64,000 bases of DNA from Kaistia dalseonensis (GTDB lineage: Bacteria > Pseudomonadota > Alphaproteobacteria > Rhizobiales > Kaistiaceae), in assembly GCF_030814715.1 (NCBI RefSeq), contig NZ_JAUSVO010000006.1:62001-126000 (forward strand). Direction: 5' to 3'. Both the position numbers and the translations under genes were made by a program. The stretch's first letter is position 1. The number at the start of each line of letters is the position of its first letter. The notes under the pieces are model-generated. The model was not told the DNA's origin and searched no databases. It was given only the letters and a program-made list of their open reading frames with translations. Shown here one piece after another: positions 14,648 through 62,290 of this stretch.

Positions 14648-15778
14648 ATGTCAGAACTATCTGCCGATCATTTGGCCGGCGCCAACTGGACCCCGCCTGA
14701 AGTCTGCATTGTCGTTCCGACTTATAATGAGAGCGGCAACATCGCGTCGCTCTATGAGAAAATCGCGATCGCGCTCCAGGGCACGCCTTGGGAGATGATC
14801 GTCGTCGACGACAACAGTCCCGACCATACGATTGACGTGGTCAGGACCTTGTCGCGGCAACACAGCAATCTGCGCGGTATCAGGCGTGTGGGACGACGCG
14901 GCCTTTCCTCGGCCTGCATCGAGGGCATACTGGCGACGGCGGCGCCCTATGTCGCCGTCATCGATGCCGACCACCAGCACGACGAGAGAATTCTGCCTGA
15001 GATGCTGGCATTGGTCCGGTCTGGCGCGGATATCGCAGTCGGCTCGCGCTTCGTCGGCGGCGCAACGGCGGGAGACGGCCTGTCGGCAACGCGGCTTTGG
15101 GGCAGCCGTCTCGCGACCAGGCTTTCATCGATCGTGACCGGTCAGGACATCACCGATCCGATGAGCGGCTTCTTCCTGCTGCGCCGCGACGAATTCAACC
15201 GCCTTGCGCCCGAGCTTTCTTCCGACGGCTTCAAGATCCTTCTCGATCTGCTGGTGACGGCCAGGCAGCAAGGCCGACCACTTGCGGTCGCCGAGGTGCC
15301 GTACACGTTCCGCGCGCGCTTCAGCGGCGAGAGCAAGATGAACTCACTGATCGCCGCCCAGTTCGTCGGACTCTGGTTCTCCAAACTGACCCGCGGCGCC
15401 GTTCCCACCACCTTCGTCCTGTTCGCAGCCATCGGCATCTCGGGAATCGGCATCCACCTGCTGACCCTCTGGCTTCTGCTCGATGTCATCGGCTTCGATT
15501 TCACCGTCTCGCAGATCGGCGCGACACTCGTCGCGATGACGACGAACTTCTTCTTCAACAATACGCTGACCTATGCGGACAAGAAGCTGTCAGGCCGGCG
15601 TCTGTTCACCGGCTTGATCGAGTTCTATGCGATCTGCTCCATTGGCGGACTGGCCAATGTGTCGGTCGCCGCATGGCTCTATCAGGCGCATCAGCCGCCT
15701 TTGTTCGCCGGTGTCGCCGGCGCTCTCATGAGCTCGGTATTCAACTATACTGTGACCCGCGCCTTTACCTGGCGTTAG
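14648..15778 (+). CDS. GtrB-GtrA fusion: polyprenyl-phosphate glycosyltransferase with C-terminal GtrA flippase-like domain
   Basis: 376 residues. The N-terminal GT2 domain (about 18-245) has VVPTYNESGNI, VVDDNSPDHT, the DxD-like VIDADHQHD and a VGSRFVGG element, as in DPM1/GtrB enzymes that make polyprenyl-phosphate hexose. Residues about 250-374 form a GtrA domain of four hydrophobic helices, with MTTNFFFNNTLTY as its signature, expected to flip the lipid-linked sugar. The same fusion occurs in archaeal dolichol-phosphate mannose synthases. The next gene is a GtrII-like transferase nine bases downstream, so the operon holds a full synthesis-flip-transfer route for decorating a surface glycan. 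Confidence 0.88.
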   Translation: MSELSADHLAGANWTPPEVCIVVPTYNESGNIASLYEKIAIALQGTPWEMIVVDDNSPDHTIDVVRTLSRQHSNLRGIRRVGRRGLSSACIEGILATAAPYVAVIDADHQHDERILPEMLALVRSGADIAVGSRFVGGATAGDGLSATRLWGSRLATRLSSIVTGQDITDPMSGFFLLRRDEFNRLAPELSSDGFKILLDLLVTARQQGRPLAVAEVPYTFRARFSGESKMNSLIAAQFVGLWFSKLTRGAVPTTFVLFAAIGISGIGIHLLTLWLLLDVIGFDFTVSQIGATLVAMTTNFFFNNTLTYADKKLSGRRLFTGLIEFYAICSIGGLANVSVAAWLYQAHQPPLFAGVAGALMSSVFNYTVTRAFTWR

Positions 15779-15787
15779 GAGACCGCA

Positions 15788-17317
15788 TTGGGACTGGTCA
15801 GATCAGCAGGTGCCACTACGCCGATATCCTGGGATCGACTTCCGGTATGGTGGCGAGAAAACGCGCTCGCCATTCTGGTCGCGTTCGGGGCCGCGCTGAT
15901 CGCCTATTCATCGATCGTCACGCAGTTTCTGTTTACCAACCATTCCGTCCCCAACATCTTCATCTACCCTTATCCAAGCTTCAAAACGTTCTATGAAGGC
16001 AGATGGTTCGCCGACATCATTATTCGTCTCGGCGGCGGCGGCGGGACACAGTCGTTTCAAGCGCTCGCCGGCTTCTTCTTCCAGGCCCTTAACGGCGTTC
16101 TGTTTGCCGAGGTCCTGCGCGTCAAGGGTCGCGCCAACAGGATATTGATCGCCCTCTTGGTCGCGCTGCATCCTGCAGTGCTCGACTATTATGCCTTCAC
16201 GATCGACAATGCGAGCTTCACGATCGGCGACAGCCTGCTGCTTCTGGGTGCCATCGCGCTGGATCGCGGCCAGAACCGTCTAGTGTCCTGGACAGCTGCG
16301 ACCATCCTCTTCGTCCTGGCCCTCGCGACCTACCAGCCGAAGATTGCCGTTCTGGCGGTGATCCTGATTGCCTGGGTCGTCTCGCGGACAACTTCTGGCC
16401 ACAGGGACGACAAGAACATCTATGCGCCAATGGTCGCGGCGGCCGTATGCTTTGTTCTCGCTGTCATACTCTACAGACTGTCGCTGTTCATCACGACGGA
16501 CTTGGCGACGGATACCGGTATAGGCCAACGGACGCATATGAACAGCCTGCGCGAAGTCGCGGTTGAGTTCTTTGTATCCTATCAGACAGTTATCGTGAGC
16601 TCGATCCGCCAGATCAAGTCACAGCCCCTCCTGACGGGATGGGCCACCATACCGATCGTGTTGGGCGGCACCACTGTCGCGGCGACCAGAGCCGCAAGGC
16701 GCAGCCCCTTGGCCGTGCTCCTGAGCCTGATCGGAATCGCCGTCTTGCCGCCGGCGATCAATCTCGCCGCGGTCATCAACAATGAGAGTTGGACGAATAC
16801 GGGCAGGATATCGATCGGTTATGTCTATGCTCTGCCCTTCTTCGTCGCCGTACTCATGACAGGCGCCTGGCAACAGCGGATTGCCCGTCTGCTCGCCATC
16901 ATCGTCATCTACGGCTTCTTCCTGGTCGCGACACAACAGAACCAGTACATGTCGACCAAGGCGCTGTTCGAGACAAACCTGCTGTCGAGGATAACAGGGC
17001 GAATCGAATCGATCCTGCCTGATGACAAGCCGCACCCGCTTGTCGTCCTGGGCTACCCCTCGTTCGACGATGGCGCGCTCACCATGATGTATCCGGATCG
17101 CCCGCTTCGTTCGCAGTTCAACACTGCGGCGTTCGCGCCCTATCGCCAGCCCGCAATCGTCAATTTCTTTCTCGGACGGAGCCAACTGCGCTTTGCAACG
17201 GCGGACGAGATCGCACTGGCGACGTCGCATGCATCCGGACGCCCTGCCTGGCCGCTGGCGGGGTCGGTCTATATGGACGGCGACATGGTTGTGGTTGTCT
17301 TGACGCCGGTGCCCTGA
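15788..17317 (+). CDS. GtrII-like membrane glucosyltransferase (Glucos_trans_II type)
   Basis: 509 residues, mostly hydrophobic, with about 10-12 transmembrane segments and a periplasmic C-terminal region. The opening (WRENALAILVAFGAALIAYS) and the HPAVLDYYAFTIDNASFTIG loop resemble the GtrII/Gtr(I) family that transfers glucose from undecaprenyl-phosphate to O-antigen. Start is TTG at 15788, supported by TAGGAGA (15776-15782) five bases upstream; that site overlaps the stop of the fused GtrB-GtrA gene, so the two are coupled. Acceptor is unknown: O-antigen, exopolysaccharide or another envelope glycan. Confidence 0.72.
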   Translation: MGLVRSAGATTPISWDRLPVWWRENALAILVAFGAALIAYSSIVTQFLFTNHSVPNIFIYPYPSFKTFYEGRWFADIIIRLGGGGGTQSFQALAGFFFQALNGVLFAEVLRVKGRANRILIALLVALHPAVLDYYAFTIDNASFTIGDSLLLLGAIALDRGQNRLVSWTAATILFVLALATYQPKIAVLAVILIAWVVSRTTSGHRDDKNIYAPMVAAAVCFVLAVILYRLSLFITTDLATDTGIGQRTHMNSLREVAVEFFVSYQTVIVSSIRQIKSQPLLTGWATIPIVLGGTTVAATRAARRSPLAVLLSLIGIAVLPPAINLAAVINNESWTNTGRISIGYVYALPFFVAVLMTGAWQQRIARLLAIIVIYGFFLVATQQNQYMSTKALFETNLLSRITGRIESILPDDKPHPLVVLGYPSFDDGALTMMYPDRPLRSQFNTAAFAPYRQPAIVNFFLGRSQLRFATADEIALATSHASGRPAWPLAGSVYMDGDMVVVVLTPVP

Positions 17318-56960: not shown

Positions 56961-57965
56961 ATGCCCAATCTCGCCGATACGCCGCTCTCGGTCCTCGACC
57001 TCGCGCCAGTCCGCCAGGGCGGCACCATATCGGCCGCGCTCGCCGACACGCTCGATCTCGCCCGCCATGTGGAAAAGCTCGGCTATAATCGCTTCTGGCT
57101 CGCCGAGCATCACAACATGCCCGGCATTGCGAGTTCCGCGACCTCCGTACTGATCGGCCATGTCGCGGGCGGCACGTCGACCATTCGCGTCGGCTCCGGC
57201 GGAGTGATGCTGCCGAACCACGCGCCGATCGTCATCGCGGAACAGTTCGGCACACTGGAGGCGCTCTATCCCGGGCGAATCGATCTCGGGCTCGGCCGTG
57301 CGCCGGGGACCGACATGCTGACCACGCGCGCACTGCGCCGCGATCTCGCCGACGACGAGAACTCGTTCCCGCGCAATGTGCAGGAACTGCTCGCCCTGCT
57401 CGCCCCGGCCGGCGAAGGCCAGAAGGTTCGGGCCGTGCCGGGTTCGGGTTCCAACGTGCCGGTCTGGCTGCTCGGCTCATCGACCTTCAGCGCGCAGCTT
57501 TCCGCCATGCTCGGCCTGCCCTTCGCATTTGCCAGCCATTTCGCGCCGCAGCGGCTGCTCGAGGCGATCGAAGTTCACCACCATTTCTTCAGGCCGTCGG
57601 AATATCTGGACAAGCCCTACATCATGGTCGGCCTGCCGGTGATCGCGGCGGACACCGACGAGAAGGCACAATATCTGGCGACGACCACCTATCAGCGCCT
57701 GGTCAATCTCGTCCGTGGCCAGCCGACCGTGCTGGTGCCGCCGGTGGACAGCATGGACGGGCTCTGGGACGAACGCGAGAAGGCGTATGTCGCCTCCCAT
57801 CTCGGTATTGCCGTCATCGGCGGACCCGAAACGGTCAAATCGGGACTGCAGGCCTTCCTGGACAAGACCGGCGCGAACGAACTGATCATCACATCCGACT
57901 TTTACGAGCATGCCGACCGGCTACGCTCGTTCGAGATCATAAAGGATGCGGCCCGGGCCGGCTGA
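56961..57965 (+). CDS. LLM-class flavin-dependent oxidoreductase (luciferase-like, MsnO8 group)
   Basis: 334 residues: [20 protein letters not shown] opening, [20 protein letters not shown] near 40, [21 protein letters not shown] near 80 and [17 protein letters not shown] near 110 are the signature of the MsnO8-like branch. FMN-dependent, flavin supplied by a reductase. Such genes are common and mostly without a known substrate. Start at 56961; ribosome site weak. Confidence 0.88.
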
Positions 57966-58025
57966 AGCCATCATACGGCCCTGATCAGGCGCGAAATGGG
58001 GACATCGTCTTGCCAAGAAGCGCCC

Positions 58026-59018
58026 ATGTCTGCCGATCAGCTTACCGTCATCGTACCGGTCTTCAACGAGGAGGCCGGGCTCCATCGTTTCGCGGCCGAA
58101 CTCAAGGCCGTGCTGGAACATATTGACCGCATCGAATGGACGGTCCTGTTCGTCGATGACGGCTCGAAAGACGAAACGCGGGACATCATCCATGTCCTGA
58201 ACGCGGGCGATCCGCGCTTTCGCGGCCTGGCGCTGAGCCGCAATTTCGGCAAGGAGGTCGCGATCGCCGCCGGTCTGCGCAATGCGGGGGGCGACGCGAT
58301 CATCCTCATGGATGGCGATCTCGAGCATCCCCCGGCGGTCCTGCCCAGCTTCGTCGAGAACTGGCGTGCCGGCTACAAGATCGTCTTCGGCCGAAGGACC
58401 GACAGCGAGCAGCAATCGGCGCTTCGCCGCCTCTATTCGAAGGCGTTCCATCGTGTCTTCACGGCGATCGCCAAGCCGAGCATTCCGTCCGGCGCCGTCG
58501 ATTTCCTGCTGATGGACCGCAAGGCGGTCGACGCGATGAACGCGCTCGGCGAGCGCGCGCGGTTCAGCAAGGGCCTCTATGCCTGGATCGGCTTCAAATC
58601 GACCGTCGTGCCGTTCGATGTCGGCCGGCGCGAAGCCGGAGATTCGAAATTCGGCTTCGTCTCGCTCGCGCGCTTCGCGATCGACGGCCTCGTGTCGTTC
58701 TCGACGATCCCGTTGAAGGTCTGGTCCTATCTCGGCCTCGTCATCTCGGTCTTCGCCCTGCTCTACGGCCTCGCCTTCATCATCGACACGATCGTCAACG
58801 GTCCCGACGTTCCGGGCTTCCCGACGCTGGTCGTGTCGATCATGTTCTTCGCGGGCGTGCAGCTCATCTCGCTGGGCGTGCTCGGCGAGTATGTTGCGCG
58901 GATCTACGAGGAGGTGAAGGGCCGGCCGCTCTTCATCGTCGACGAGACGATCGGCGGCGGCAGTCCCCGCCCCGCCTCGCCGGAGACCCGCATCGCGTCG
59001 GCGGAGCAAAGGGACTGA
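58026..59018 (+). CDS. Polyprenyl-phosphate glycosyltransferase, GtrB/ArnC/FlmF2-like
   Basis: 330 residues. GT2 domain (about 5-225) with VIVPVFNEEAGLHRF, VDDGSKDETRD, ALSRNFGKEVAIAAG and MDGDLEHPP (DxD-like); two membrane helices at the C-terminus (about 238-260 and 275-300) and a cytoplasmic tail. This is the ArnC/GtrB type that loads a sugar on undecaprenyl phosphate. Its stop and the start of the deacetylase share one base (TGATG), so the next gene is coupled. It is a separate gene from the fused one at 14.6 kb. An ATG at 57996 is in frame but lacks a ribosome site. Confidence 0.9.
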   Translation: MSADQLTVIVPVFNEEAGLHRFAAELKAVLEHIDRIEWTVLFVDDGSKDETRDIIHVLNAGDPRFRGLALSRNFGKEVAIAAGLRNAGGDAIILMDGDLEHPPAVLPSFVENWRAGYKIVFGRRTDSEQQSALRRLYSKAFHRVFTAIAKPSIPSGAVDFLLMDRKAVDAMNALGERARFSKGLYAWIGFKSTVVPFDVGRREAGDSKFGFVSLARFAIDGLVSFSTIPLKVWSYLGLVISVFALLYGLAFIIDTIVNGPDVPGFPTLVVSIMFFAGVQLISLGVLGEYVARIYEEVKGRPLFIVDETIGGGSPRPASPETRIASAEQRD

Positions 59019-59872
59019 TGGCGGACAGGGTGCTGCTCTGCGCCGATGATTTCGCGCTTTCGCCGGGCGTATCGCGCGGCATCGCGGAATTGATCCGAGC
59101 GGGGCGTCTGTCGGCCACGGGCGCGATGGTGACGGAGCCCGATTGGGCCGCGCAGCGGACCGCGTTGCCTGAATTGCGGTCCAAAGCCGCGATCGGCCTT
59201 CATCTCAATCTGACCACAGGTGGACCGCTCGGCCCCATGCCGACTTTGGCGCCCGATGGACCGTTTCCGGGCCTGCAGGCGCTGATGCGGCTGGCCTTCA
59301 CCGGCCGCCTTGCGGCGCCCGAAATCAGCGCGGAAATCAGCCGTCAGCTCGACCAGTTCGAGACCGTGGCGAACATGCCGCCCGATTTCGTCGATGGCCA
59401 CCACCATGTTCAGGTCCTGCCGAAAGTCCGTGCCGCCCTGCTCGACGCATTGTCCCGGCGCTATCCCGGCCACACGCCCCTGCTTCGCAATCCCGGCGAC
59501 ACTGTTCGGCGAATCGCGGCGCGGCGCGGTGCAGGGCGAAAGGCGCTGCTCGTCACCCTGCTCGCCCGCGGCTTCGGTGCCGACGCGCATCGCCATGGCA
59601 TTGCGACCAATGAGGGCTTTTCGGGATTTTCGGCGTTTGATCGCGAGCGCGCCTTCGCTGACGAGCTGACGACCTTTCTGAAGGCGCCGGGACCACGACA
59701 GATCGTCATGTGCCACCCCGGCTATCCCGACCAGCAGCTTGCGGCGCTGGACCCGCTCTTCGACCGGCGTCTTGACGAGCTCGGCGCATTGATGACCTAT
59801 CCCGATCTGGACCGGCTGATCACGCGGCCGAGGCGCAACACGGACGGACGGATCGAATGGTTATGGCCGTGA
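59018..59872 (+). CDS. YdjC/ChbG/NaxD-family deacetylase
   Basis: 284 residues. LLCADDFALSPGVSRGIAEL has the metal Asp, AIGLHLNLTTGGPLGP near 62 one His, and VDGHHHVQVLPKVR near 125 the next His cluster; MCHPGYPD near 232 completes the YdjC fold. Known members deacetylate chitobiose (ChbG), hopanoid intermediates (HpnK) or undecaprenyl-phosphate-GalNAc (Francisella NaxD). Between a polyprenyl-phosphate glycosyltransferase and a GtrA gene, the NaxD role fits best: unmasking an amine on a lipid-linked sugar. Overlaps the GtrA gene by 16 bases. Confidence 0.88.
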   Translation: MADRVLLCADDFALSPGVSRGIAELIRAGRLSATGAMVTEPDWAAQRTALPELRSKAAIGLHLNLTTGGPLGPMPTLAPDGPFPGLQALMRLAFTGRLAAPEISAEISRQLDQFETVANMPPDFVDGHHHVQVLPKVRAALLDALSRRYPGHTPLLRNPGDTVRRIAARRGAGRKALLVTLLARGFGADAHRHGIATNEGFSGFSAFDRERAFADELTTFLKAPGPRQIVMCHPGYPDQQLAALDPLFDRRLDELGALMTYPDLDRLITRPRRNTDGRIEWLWP

Positions 59873-60300
59873 GCCCTCGCCGCAGGCAGCAATTGCACCA
59901 TCTCGCCGGCTTCCTCGTGGCGGGTGGCAGCGCCTTTCTGGTCGATGCGGGCATTCTCATGCTGCTCGTCCATTTCGGCGCCAACCCTTTTGCGGCACGG
60001 CCCTTCGCCATCGCCTGCGCCATGGTCGTCGGCTGGCTGATCAACCGCACATGGACCTTCCCCATGCCCGGGCCGCCGCGCCTCGGCGAGTTCCTGCGCT
60101 ACGCCGCCGTCGCCTGGCTCTCGGTCTCGATCAACTATGCGATCTATGCGGGATTGCTGATCGTGTGGCCGACCATGCCGCTGATCGAGGCGCTGGTCAT
60201 CGCCACGGCGATCGCCATGTTTTTCTCCTATTTCGGCTACCGCCTGATCGCCTTCCGCAAGCCCCGCTCGGCGGTCAGCGCGTCCGGGCCGAAGTCGTAG
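59857..60300 (+). CDS. GtrA-family membrane protein (polyprenyl-phosphate-sugar flippase-like)
   Basis: 147 residues with four hydrophobic helices. HLAGFLVAGGSAFLVDAGIL near 12, and VVGWLINRTWTFPMPG near 55 is the GtrA signature (NR/NxxWTF). GtrA proteins are thought to flip undecaprenyl-phosphate sugars to the periplasm. Overlaps the deacetylase end by 16 bases and its last 26 bases overlap the 3' end of the convergent GT87 gene. The short C-terminal tail is basic. Confidence 0.9.
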   Translation: MVMAVSPRRRQQLHHLAGFLVAGGSAFLVDAGILMLLVHFGANPFAARPFAIACAMVVGWLINRTWTFPMPGPPRLGEFLRYAAVAWLSVSINYAIYAGLLIVWPTMPLIEALVIATAIAMFFSYFGYRLIAFRKPRSAVSASGPKS

Positions 60301-61474
60301 CCGCCTGCGGCGCTGCCAGGCAGCGCCACACCAGGAAGGGCAGGAAGGCGAGGCAGAGCAGCGGCTGCAGCCAGAGATTCGTCAGCTTGAACGTGAGCGC
60401 CTGCACGAGGAAGCCAAAGGCGATCGCGCCCAGGAACCAGGTCGGCCCCGCAAGGCGGTCCCTGTTCCAGACGATGCTGGCGTAAACCGCGAGCACCGAA
60501 CCGAACATGATGTAGGTGTTGGCCTCGGTGCGCGGGTTCATCAGCATCAGATAGACGACCGAGAGCGCGAATATGTCGATCGCCGCATCGAGGCCGTCAC
60601 GACGGCGCTTCGTGATGTAGGCGAGCCCCAGCACGACGGCGGCGATCACGATCCGGATCGCGGTCAGGACGGGGTCCGAAAGCCAGATGCCGAGGCTGTG
60701 GAGAAGGCCGGTGATGTCGGCCCATGCGCCCTCGCCCGGATCGCCGGCCACCATGATCTTCTGGATGCCCAGCCCGTAGAGGTGGAAGGCCACGACGGGA
60801 TCCGGATTGACCAGCGGCAGCAGCAGCACGCCGATCGTAACGACCAGCAAGCGCCAGCCAAGCTTGGGATAAAGCACCCCGACCAGCAGCATCATGACGA
60901 AGGCGAGCGGCTTGATCGCAAAGGCGAGCCCGAGCAGCAGTGCGGCGAGCCACCAGCGCCTCTCGGCGATCGAAAGCGCGCTGAGCAGCATGAGCGCCGT
61001 CAGGATGGTCGTCGCCTGGCCGTTCCGGAGTGCGCTGAACGCGCTCGGCATCAGGAACAGCAGCGCCGCGCCGAAGACCAGCAGCCGGTCGCGCGCCGGC
61101 ATGGAGGGCATGGCCAGGATGCTGGCGCGCCACAATGCAAAGGCCAGAAGCACGACCGAGACAACCCGCCAGAGCGCATCGCCGACATTCGGCCCCAGCA
61201 GCGCGAACGGCGTATAGAGCACCGCAAAGCTCGGCAGATAGAGGAAGCCCTCGCGGCCGGCGCCGAAAATGTCCTCGCCGCGCCACCAGCCGAGCGCACC
61301 ATTGCGATAGACCGGAACGACGCTGCTCGCGGACGGATCGCGCAGGACCAGCACCACGACAACGAGATTGAACAGAACGAAGAGCGCCAGTCCGACGACC
61401 CCGGCGACAGGAAGGAGTCGATCCAGCGGATCGCGCGACCCTGCGCCTGCGGTCGCGATATTCACATTCGACAT
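60275..61474 (-). CDS. GT87/DUF2029-family integral membrane glycosyltransferase
   Basis: 399 residues with about ten membrane helices. The pattern GREGFLYLPSFAVLYTPFAL near 75 (YPP-like: acidic/aromatic then Pro), NGQATTILTALMLLSAL near 150 and AIKPLAFVMMLLVG near 185 is that of the GT87 (DUF2029) group, GT-C enzymes using polyprenyl-phosphate sugars (as in mycobacterial mannosyltransferases). It converges on the GtrA gene with a 26-base overlap, so it is on another transcript but is likely the transferase of this cassette. Acceptor unknown. Confidence 0.82.
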   Translation of the reverse strand: MSNVNIATAGAGSRDPLDRLLPVAGVVGLALFVLFNLVVVVLVLRDPSASSVVPVYRNGALGWWRGEDIFGAGREGFLYLPSFAVLYTPFALLGPNVGDALWRVVSVVLLAFALWRASILAMPSMPARDRLLVFGAALLFLMPSAFSALRNGQATTILTALMLLSALSIAERRWWLAALLLGLAFAIKPLAFVMMLLVGVLYPKLGWRLLVVTIGVLLLPLVNPDPVVAFHLYGLGIQKIMVAGDPGEGAWADITGLLHSLGIWLSDPVLTAIRIVIAAVVLGLAYITKRRRDGLDAAIDIFALSVVYLMLMNPRTEANTYIMFGSVLAVYASIVWNRDRLAGPTWFLGAIAFGFLVQALTFKLTNLWLQPLLCLAFLPFLVWRCLAAPQAATTSARTR

Positions 61475-61495
61475 CGAAATTCCATTTCCTGCCGA

Positions 61496-62290
61496 TTATC
61501 CGGCGCGCGGCTCGAGGCCGCACTGCGCCAACAAGCCGGTGAGATTATGGGACCAGTCTTTTGCCGAAGTTAGGTACGCACCACCCTTGTTCAGTGGCGT
61601 TCCCTCGGGATCGGGCTCCCGGCCGAGCACGGAAAGGACACGGCGCGCGATCGCTTCGGCCGGATCGACCCAGGCCACCGGCCAGGGCGCGAGCCGGTCG
61701 AACCGCTCGAGGAGAAAGGGATAATGCGTGCAGGCCAGAACGACAACATCGGTTCTGCGTCCATCGACCTCGATGAAGGCCGGTTCGATCTCGGTTCGGA
61801 TCGCCTCGTCCGGCACGTCCTCACCAGCCATGACGCGTTCCGCCAGCGGGGCGAGTTCCGACGAGCCGACGAGGCGGACATGGCAGCGCTGCGCGAAGGA
61901 GCGGATGAGTTCGCGCGTATAGTCGCGCTTCATCGTGCCGGGCGTCGCGAGAACACCGATGACGCCGCTCTTCGTACGCTCGGTGGCCGGCTTGATCGCC
62001 GGCACGGTGCCGATGAAGGGAATGGGATGGGCAGCGCGCAGCGCGGGAAGCACCAGCGTGGACGCCGTGTTGCAGGCGATGACGACAGCATCGGGCTGGA
62101 ACCGCGCGATCAACCGGCCGATCAGCGCCACGATATGTTCGAGCAGCGGTCCGGCCTCCCAATCGCCATAGGGAAAGGCGGCATCGTCGGCGACATAGGC
62201 GATCTCCGCCGAGGGCAGATTGCGGCGGATCTCGCGCAATACGGAGAGACCGCCTATCCCGGAATCGAAGACCAGCAGCCGGATGCTCAA
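61496..62290 (-). CDS. murI: Glutamate racemase
   Basis: 264 residues. LLVFDSGIGGLSVLREIRR opening with the catalytic-acid Asp-Ser, first Cys in VIACNTASTLVL near 70 and second in LACTHYPFLLERF near 178. Makes D-glutamate for peptidoglycan. The start is TTG at 62290, overlapping the TGA of the trmJ-like gene (TTGA); there is no closer ATG. The frame is open far upstream but those residues do not fit the family. Probably coupled with the methyltransferase gene. Confidence 0.92.
   Translation of the reverse strand: MSIRLLVFDSGIGGLSVLREIRRNLPSAEIAYVADDAAFPYGDWEAGPLLEHIVALIGRLIARFQPDAVVIACNTASTLVLPALRAAHPIPFIGTVPAIKPATERTKSGVIGVLATPGTMKRDYTRELIRSFAQRCHVRLVGSSELAPLAERVMAGEDVPDEAIRTEIEPAFIEVDGRRTDVVVLACTHYPFLLERFDRLAPWPVAWVDPAEAIARRVLSVLGREPDPEGTPLNKGGAYLTSAKDWSHNLTGLLAQCGLEPRAG

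What the first reader, a model, noticed from the sequence alone, without database searches (positions are those of the whole stretch)
58026..61474. Lgm/NaxD-like cassette predicted to add an amino sugar to lipid A or an envelope glycan
Seen: ArnC/GtrB-like GT2, YdjC-type deacetylase overlapping it by one base, GtrA overlapping that by 16, and a convergent GT87 membrane transferase. Known: Francisella FlmF2-NaxD-FlmK and the Bordetella lgm locus use a polyprenyl-phosphate GT, a YdjC deacetylase and a GT-C transferase to put an amino sugar on lipid A phosphates. Inferred: same logic here with GT87 in place of the ArnT-like enzyme. An uncovered amine would lower surface charge and cationic-peptide sensitivity.
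Basis: partly seen in the sequence, partly recalled or inferred. Interest (0 to 1): 0.7.

Follow-up and report, generated by a model that had tools for sequence, protein, structure and literature searches.

The report
Cassette predicted to export amino sugars
Four neighbouring genes in a soil bacterium of the genus Kaistia look like a complete kit for putting a sugar on a membrane carrier, uncovering its amino group, flipping it outward and attaching it to a cell-surface molecule; the kit is real and comes and goes as one block, but what it decorates is not known.

Summary
The four genes are confirmed at the stated places: GT2, YdjC deacetylase, GtrA and a convergent GT87. They form one unit. 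In 7 of 14 genomes of the genus (Kaistia, by contig match) they sit between the same neighbours; YdjC and GT87 have no match in the other 7. In 5 of 6 cassette-free genomes fetched, those neighbours lie 3-72 bp apart. In a second, unnamed genus, all 8 matching genomes carry the four genes as one co-directional run, although its GT2 and YdjC lie on other branches. GT2 and YdjC are linked widely and diverge together. Elsewhere a PMT_2 or YfhO protein accompanies them. HpnK is excluded by score, tree and absence of hopene cyclase. I read it as a gtr-type polyprenyl-phosphate system with a built-in deacetylase: a new variant of a known kind. The amino-sugar logic is supported. Lipid A as target is not: the GT-C is GT87, no LPS gene was seen among the flanking genes scanned, and nothing here tests the acceptor.

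The parts
57996..59018 (+). GT2 polyprenyl-phosphate sugar synthase, GtrB-like, two hydrophobic segments in its C-terminal part (likely start 58026)
   Evidence: PF00535 101 bits; best solved relatives sll0501 347 bits, ArnC 190 bits; hydrophobic segments near residues 237 and 272
59018..59872 (+). YdjC-family deacetylase, presumed N-acetylhexosamine deacetylase; no hydrophobic segment found, so predicted cytoplasmic
   Evidence: PF04794 165 bits; D10, D11, H62, H128, H130, H233 invariant in 36 sequences; model pLDDT 94.4, best PDB match ChbG 7vi8
59857..60300 (+). GtrA-family membrane protein with four hydrophobic segments, presumed flippase of the lipid-linked sugar
   Evidence: PF04138 75 bits
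60275..61474 (-). GT87 polytopic membrane glycosyltransferase, presumed periplasmic GT-C transferase
   Evidence: PF09594 64 bits, cut-off 25; 12 hydrophobic segments in a simple scan; linked to YdjC, GT2 and GtrA in 7 of 7 own-genus genomes that have it and in all 8 matching genomes of a second genus
57966..61495 (.). extent of the presence/absence block between the luciferase-like monooxygenase gene (56961-57965 +) and murI (ends at 61496, -)
   Evidence: in 5 of 6 cassette-free genus genomes fetched these two genes end 3-72 bp apart

Best explanation
A four-part envelope glycosylation cassette. (1) GT2 moves an N-acetylhexosamine (GlcNAc or GalNAc; inferred from the deacetylase) from a UDP-sugar to a polyprenyl phosphate on the cytoplasmic face. 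(2) YdjC removes the acetyl group while the sugar is still on the cytoplasmic side. (3) GtrA flips the lipid-linked amino sugar. (4) GT87 transfers it to an envelope acceptor in the periplasm. Shown: gene families, conserved putative deacetylase site, no hydrophobic segment in YdjC, the four genes as one unit in two genera. Inferred: substrates, order of steps, flipping, catalysis by GT87, acceptor. Most likely acceptor: an LPS or other surface polysaccharide, or lipid A; undecided.
For: All four families confirmed. YdjC and GT87 are present in the same 7 of 14 genus genomes, at one place beside GT2 and GtrA, and the site is empty in 5 of 6 cassette-free genomes fetched. A second genus has GT87-GT2-YdjC-GtrA co-directional in all 8 genomes that matched, with YdjC and GT2 outside the Kaistia groups: the link is kept although gene order and orientation differ. 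GT2 lies within 3 kb of YdjC in 66 of the 80 loci kept (the best of 404 relatives) and in 19 of 20 further loci that I picked over genera. YdjC and GT2 identities correlate at r = 0.88 over 52 chosen loci, 0 of 1000 permutations as high. In L098, of the same YdjC group as Kaistia, the order is PMT_2-GT2-YdjC-GtrA, a different GT-C in the same company. The GtrA/GtrB/GT-C scheme is described for O-antigen modification (PMC11127046, passages); YdjC-family deacetylation of polyprenyl-linked GalNAc is described for NaxD (PMC11279074, a review, passages).
Against: No biochemistry. 14 of 80 loci have no GT2 within 3 kb of YdjC (some are short contigs, L074 has one about 4 kb away). In 57 of 80 loci there is GT2 but no GtrA or GT87 match within 3 kb; other GT-C families were not sought there systematically. 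Five of nine named loci with GT2-YdjC-GtrA have no GT87; among the neighbours scanned a recognised GT-C was seen in one of those five, L098. Two extra GT87 copies in G282 are unlinked, and in G632 GT87 and YdjC are on separate contigs. D68 of the first predicted loop is invariant in the 7 own-genus GT87s but not across both genera (D253 and E317 are invariant in all 17), so I could not name a catalytic acid. The GT87 structure job never finished.
Confidence: 0.68

Rival explanations
1. Strict Lgm/NaxD function: the amino sugar goes onto lipid A phosphates and lowers cationic-peptide sensitivity.
For: Donor logic equals NaxD as described (PMC11279074 passages); in Bordetella GlcN on lipid A depends on the lgm genes (PMC11401268 passages; a YdjC protein in lgm is recalled, the word deacetylase does not occur in that paper).
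Against: GT-C is GT87, not the ArnT-like type (recalled for those systems); flanking genes are a luciferase-like oxidoreductase, murI (named from sequence), a TrmJ-type gene and a DUF308 gene; in two loci of the second genus the scanned neighbours are dehydrogenases, a phosphotransferase-family gene and an RND pump gene; half of the genus lacks the cassette.
Confidence: 0.27
2. Gtr-type decoration of O-antigen, capsule or exopolysaccharide with an amino-sugar side residue.
For: GT2 closest to sll0501 among solved relatives; GtrA present; patchy presence within a genus, as serotype-like modules show; the same window holds a plain Gtr-type pair.
Against: No polysaccharide cluster seen among the flanking genes scanned; no GT87 known to me in O-antigen modification.
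Confidence: 0.38
3. YdjC is HpnK and the cassette serves hopanoid glucosamine synthesis.
For: YdjC family membership and weak HpnK score, 53.8 bits.
Against: Below the 232.6 cut-off; four HpnK over the cut-off form a separate branch, support 100; one genome (G078) has both kinds; no squalene-hopene cyclase match in the genome; Kaistia is listed as lacking shc (PMC12583986, passages).
Confidence: 0.01
4. YdjC is a catabolic chitobiose or cellobiose deacetylase that happens to sit beside a glycosylation operon.
For: Best solved relative is ChbG.
Against: 91.5 bits against the chitin-disaccharide deacetylase cut-off of 227; co-divergence with GT2; the genome's other YdjC (L002), beside what reads by eye like a sugar-binding protein, fits the catabolic role and branches apart, though on long branches.
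Confidence: 0.04
5. GT87 is an unrelated convergent neighbour; the functional unit is GT2-YdjC-GtrA only.
For: Opposite strand in Kaistia; related trios without GT87 exist.
Against: YdjC and GT87 are present or absent together in 14 of 14 genus genomes; GT87 is the first gene of the same co-directional run in all 8 matching genomes of a second genus; weak GT87 homologues in 5 other genomes have none of the partners near.
Confidence: 0.08

Closest known systems
GtrA/GtrB/Gtr(type) three-component periplasmic glycosylation
   Same: GtrB-like GT2, GtrA, dedicated GT-C-type gene in one locus
   Different: has a deacetylase between GT2 and GtrA, and a GT87 as transferase
FlmF2-NaxD-FlmK (Francisella) and lgm (Bordetella) lipid A amino-sugar addition (gene make-up recalled, but for NaxD)
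   Same: polyprenyl-P GT2, YdjC deacetylase, GT-C
   Different: GT87 instead of the ArnT-like enzyme; a GtrA is part of the unit; target unknown
PpgS / Rv3632 / Rv3779 galactosamine addition to arabinogalactan (Corynebacteriales)
   Same: polyprenyl-P-HexNAc made, flipped, deacetylated and transferred outside
   Different: flipping and deacetylation are assigned to unidentified factors there (PMC9671496, passages); here both have candidates; GT2 scores only 20 bits with the PpgS model
CsbB/GtcA/YfhO-like Gram-positive multi-component glycosylation (recalled; listings)
   Same: GT2, GtrA-like flippase, GT-C; L206, and weakly L211, pair YdjC-GT2 with a YfhO-type protein
   Different: no deacetylase in the Gram-positive sets (recalled)
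HpnI-HpnK-HpnJ
   Same: GlcNAc added, then deacetylated (PMC12583986, passages)
   Different: different YdjC branch; no hopene cyclase match in the genome

Membership tests
Gtr-type three-component system | GT2 polyprenyl-phosphate sugar synthase with C-terminal membrane segments | tested here: met
   family and segments only, activity not tested
Gtr-type three-component system | GtrA gene in the locus | tested here: met
Gtr-type three-component system | dedicated GT-C in the same locus | tested here: met
   GT87 linked in 7 of 7 and 8 of 8 matching genomes of two genera; GT-C fold not modelled, job unfinished
Gtr-type three-component system | periplasmic transfer to a glycan | not testable with these tools
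   needs mutants and glycan analysis
NaxD/Lgm lipid A modification | YdjC deacetylase with intact metal site | tested here: met
   D10, D11, H62, H128 invariant in 36; aligned to ChbG; that these are the metal ligands is recalled
NaxD/Lgm lipid A modification | YdjC groups with NaxD or the lgm deacetylase in a tree | not tested
   reference sequences not fetched
NaxD/Lgm lipid A modification | ArnT-like (GT83/PMT) transferase | tested here: not met
   the only Pfam family is GT87
NaxD/Lgm lipid A modification | lipid A phosphate as acceptor | not testable with these tools
   needs mass spectrometry
HpnK | NCBIfam TIGR03473 cut-off 232.6 bits | tested here: not met
   53.8 bits
HpnK | groups with HpnK in a tree | tested here: not met
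HpnK | hopanoid genes in the genome | tested here: not met
   no SQHop_cyclase_C match in own genome; control rings in 2 of 14; other hopanoid genes not searched
Chitin disaccharide deacetylase (ChbG) | NF002559 cut-off 227 bits | tested here: not met
   91.5 bits
ArnC | NF007986 cut-off 529 bits | tested here: not met
   161.6 bits
GT87 | PF09594 cut-off 25 bits | tested here: met
   64.1 bits

The most novel reading that the evidence does not exclude
Alphaproteobacteria use one exportable donor module, a GtrB-like GT2 plus a YdjC deacetylase (often with GtrA), that makes polyprenyl-phosphate hexosamine and is coupled to interchangeable GT-C enzymes of unrelated families (GT87, PMT_2, YfhO), so that free amino sugars can be placed on different envelope targets. 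In Kaistia and one other genus GT87 has been recruited, which would be the first GT87 known to me to use an amino-sugar donor.
Probability: 0.45. Interest if true: 0.62.

Novelty: new variant of a known kind. Interest (0 to 1): 0.45.

Why it matters
It ties a deacetylase and a presumed flippase to one polyprenyl-phosphate amino-sugar route in a single block, two steps that are assigned to unidentified factors in the corynebacterial galactosamine route (PMC9671496, passages). Kaistia genomes with and without the block at the same site give a natural comparison, and the block predicts a free amine on the cell surface of soil bacteria that can be sought by mass spectrometry.

Tried and rejected
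HpnK/hopanoid reading: rejected. Catabolic YdjC: unlikely. GT87 as mere neighbour: unlikely. A single-protein scan of genome contigs confirmed no relative; repeated with the alignment. The PDB sequence search with the GT87 profile found nothing up to E = 1. GT87 structure prediction was submitted and polled through without a result; the GT-C fold and a catalytic acid remain untested. Placement against NaxD or the lgm deacetylase was not attempted. In Bosea-type loci the GT2 is followed by a MurJ-family gene; since G257 has that MurJ only, I did not read it as a dedicated flippase. Literature: ten searches. YdjC with deacetylase and undecaprenyl phosphate gave two reviews. No paper held YdjC with GtrA and glycosyltransferase, GT87 with undecaprenyl and lipopolysaccharide, or four of the five terms YdjC, GT-C, deacetylase, polyprenyl, lipid A. 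PimE with GT87 gave two papers, listing only. The library lacks most subscription papers, so this is weak evidence of absence in print. Rows dropped or chosen: of 404 relatives the tool kept the best 80. The YdjC tree used 31 of those 80 and dropped 2 of 75 rows shorter than 180 residues. The GT2 comparison used 52 loci, 21 of the 80 and 16 of the 20 order loci among them, chosen for having a GT2; it took the best GT2 of each locus. Of 7 cassette-free genus genomes one (G021, 720 contigs) was not fetched, and in one of the six fetched (G020) no luciferase-like gene was found in the stretch. Both trees are quick ones, without bootstrap.
Full report
Observation. The GT2-YdjC overlap of one base and the YdjC-GtrA overlap of 16 bases are correct; the convergent GtrA and GT87 ends overlap by 26 bases. 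Upstream is a luciferase-like monooxygenase (56961-57965 +), downstream murI (named from its sequence, not from a call), a TrmJ-type gene and a DUF308 gene. The genus is Kaistia: G014, of the same genus, has a contig of 1,593,317 bases, the length of the Kaistia adipata DSM 17808 contig that the search for related loci returned.

The parts. GT2 is nearest sll0501 among solved proteins (347 bits; ArnC 190 bits) and below every NCBIfam cut-off: PgfS 298 of 500, ArnC 162 of 529. YdjC keeps D10, D11, H62, H128, H130 and H233 in 36 of 36 sequences, 35 of them from the 80 loci. Its model has mean pLDDT 94.4 and matches ChbG first (7vi8, 26% identity). Strand 1 begins at residue 5 and no hydrophobic segment was found, so deacetylation on the cytoplasmic side, before flipping, is the natural inference. 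GtrA has four and GT87 twelve hydrophobic segments in a simple Kyte-Doolittle scan.

One unit. In the own family (28 genomes) strong YdjC matches occur in 7 genomes, all of the own genus (7 of 14); an eighth match is weak and partial. Strong GT87 matches occur in the same 7; an eighth is weak. The order is the same in the six relatives fetched: luciferase-like gene, GT2, YdjC, GtrA, GT87 reversed, murI. Of the 7 genus genomes without it, 6 were fetched. None of these stretches has YdjC, GtrA or GT87; two have a weak partial GT2 match elsewhere. In 5 the luciferase-like gene and murI end 3, 31, 30, 30 and 72 bp apart. Within the genus the genes come and go as a block.

A second genus. In 397 genomes of the order the GT87 profile matched 22. 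Fifteen are strong: the 7 own-genus genomes and 8 of another, unnamed genus (g69); any g69 genome without a match would not be listed. In these 8, GT87, GT2, YdjC and GtrA lie in that order on one strand; domain envelopes of GT2 and YdjC are -4 to 17 bp apart, those of YdjC and GtrA 14 to 29. Two extra GT87 copies in G282 stand alone. Of the 7 genomes with weak GT87 matches I fetched 5; none has a partner in the 9-13 kb taken. In the class scan (385 genomes, 4 matched) one further genome, G632, has a 208-bit GT87; it also has a YdjC, on another short contig. The two weak class matches have no YdjC. The g69 YdjC and GT2 lie outside the groups that hold Kaistia's; g69 and Kaistia are each one group with support 96-100. 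So the association with this kind of GT87 holds across different donor modules.

The donor module. YdjC matched in 147 of 397 order genomes, weak and partial matches included. GT2 lies within 3 kb in 66 of 80 named loci (the best 80 of 404; four are own-genus), 19 of 20 further loci chosen by me over genera, and 8 of 8 g69 loci; GtrA in 9 of 80, 7 of 20 and 8 of 8. Three of the 20 repeat named loci (L212-L214). Identities of YdjC and GT2 rise and fall together over 52 loci (r = 0.88, 0 of 1000 permutations as high; related sequences are not independent). Kaistia and eight loci with GT2-YdjC-GtrA form one group in both trees, support 100 and 96.

Other GT-C partners. L098 (Hyphomicrobiaceae) has PMT_2-GT2-YdjC-GtrA in one direction. 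L207 and L210 have a PMT_2 protein beside GT2; L206 has a YfhO protein between GT2 and GtrA; L211 has a YfhO match below the cut-off. So similar donor genes meet unrelated transferase families. Of 80 named loci 57 show only GT2 within 3 kb; 55 of 80 hold a gene of one cluster whose scanned member, L066, is MurJ-family.

What it is not. HpnK: 53.8 bits against 232.6; four HpnK over the cut-off group apart; G078 has both kinds; no hopene cyclase match in the genome, in line with Kaistia being listed without shc (PMC12583986, passages). ChbG: 91.5 bits against 227.

Mechanism and limits. The gtr scheme (PMC11127046, passages) plus NaxD-type deacetylation (PMC11279074, passages) gives the model in Best explanation. 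The sugar, the acceptor and the phenotype are not determined. Lipid A is possible but none of the neighbours scanned in either genus points to it (of g69 two loci only). The window also holds a plain Gtr-type pair without deacetylase at 14648-17317, so this genome probably has at least two such systems.

Noticed in passing
window 14648-15778 + and 16178-17317 +: One ORF fuses a GT2 to a GtrA domain and is followed, about 400 bp on, by a GtrII-type glucosyl transferase ORF (PF14264, 42 bits, cut-off 30): a second, deacetylase-free three-component system in the same window.
   Followed up: partly
L066 3137-5795 and similar loci: The GT2 divergent from YdjC is followed by a MurJ-family gene (cluster present in 55 of 80 loci; PF03023 in the two members scanned). 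Five of six such genomes searched have a second full-length MurJ elsewhere, one (G257) does not.
   Followed up: partly
L194 6129-7340 and L196 1445-2632: Two extra GT87 copies in G282 without YdjC, GT2 or GtrA matches in the stretch fetched.
   Followed up: no
L002 (G000:C2:145801-146556): The genome's second YdjC, beside ORFs that read by eye like a sugar-binding protein and a sugar isomerase, probably catabolic; branches apart from the cassette YdjC.
   Followed up: partly
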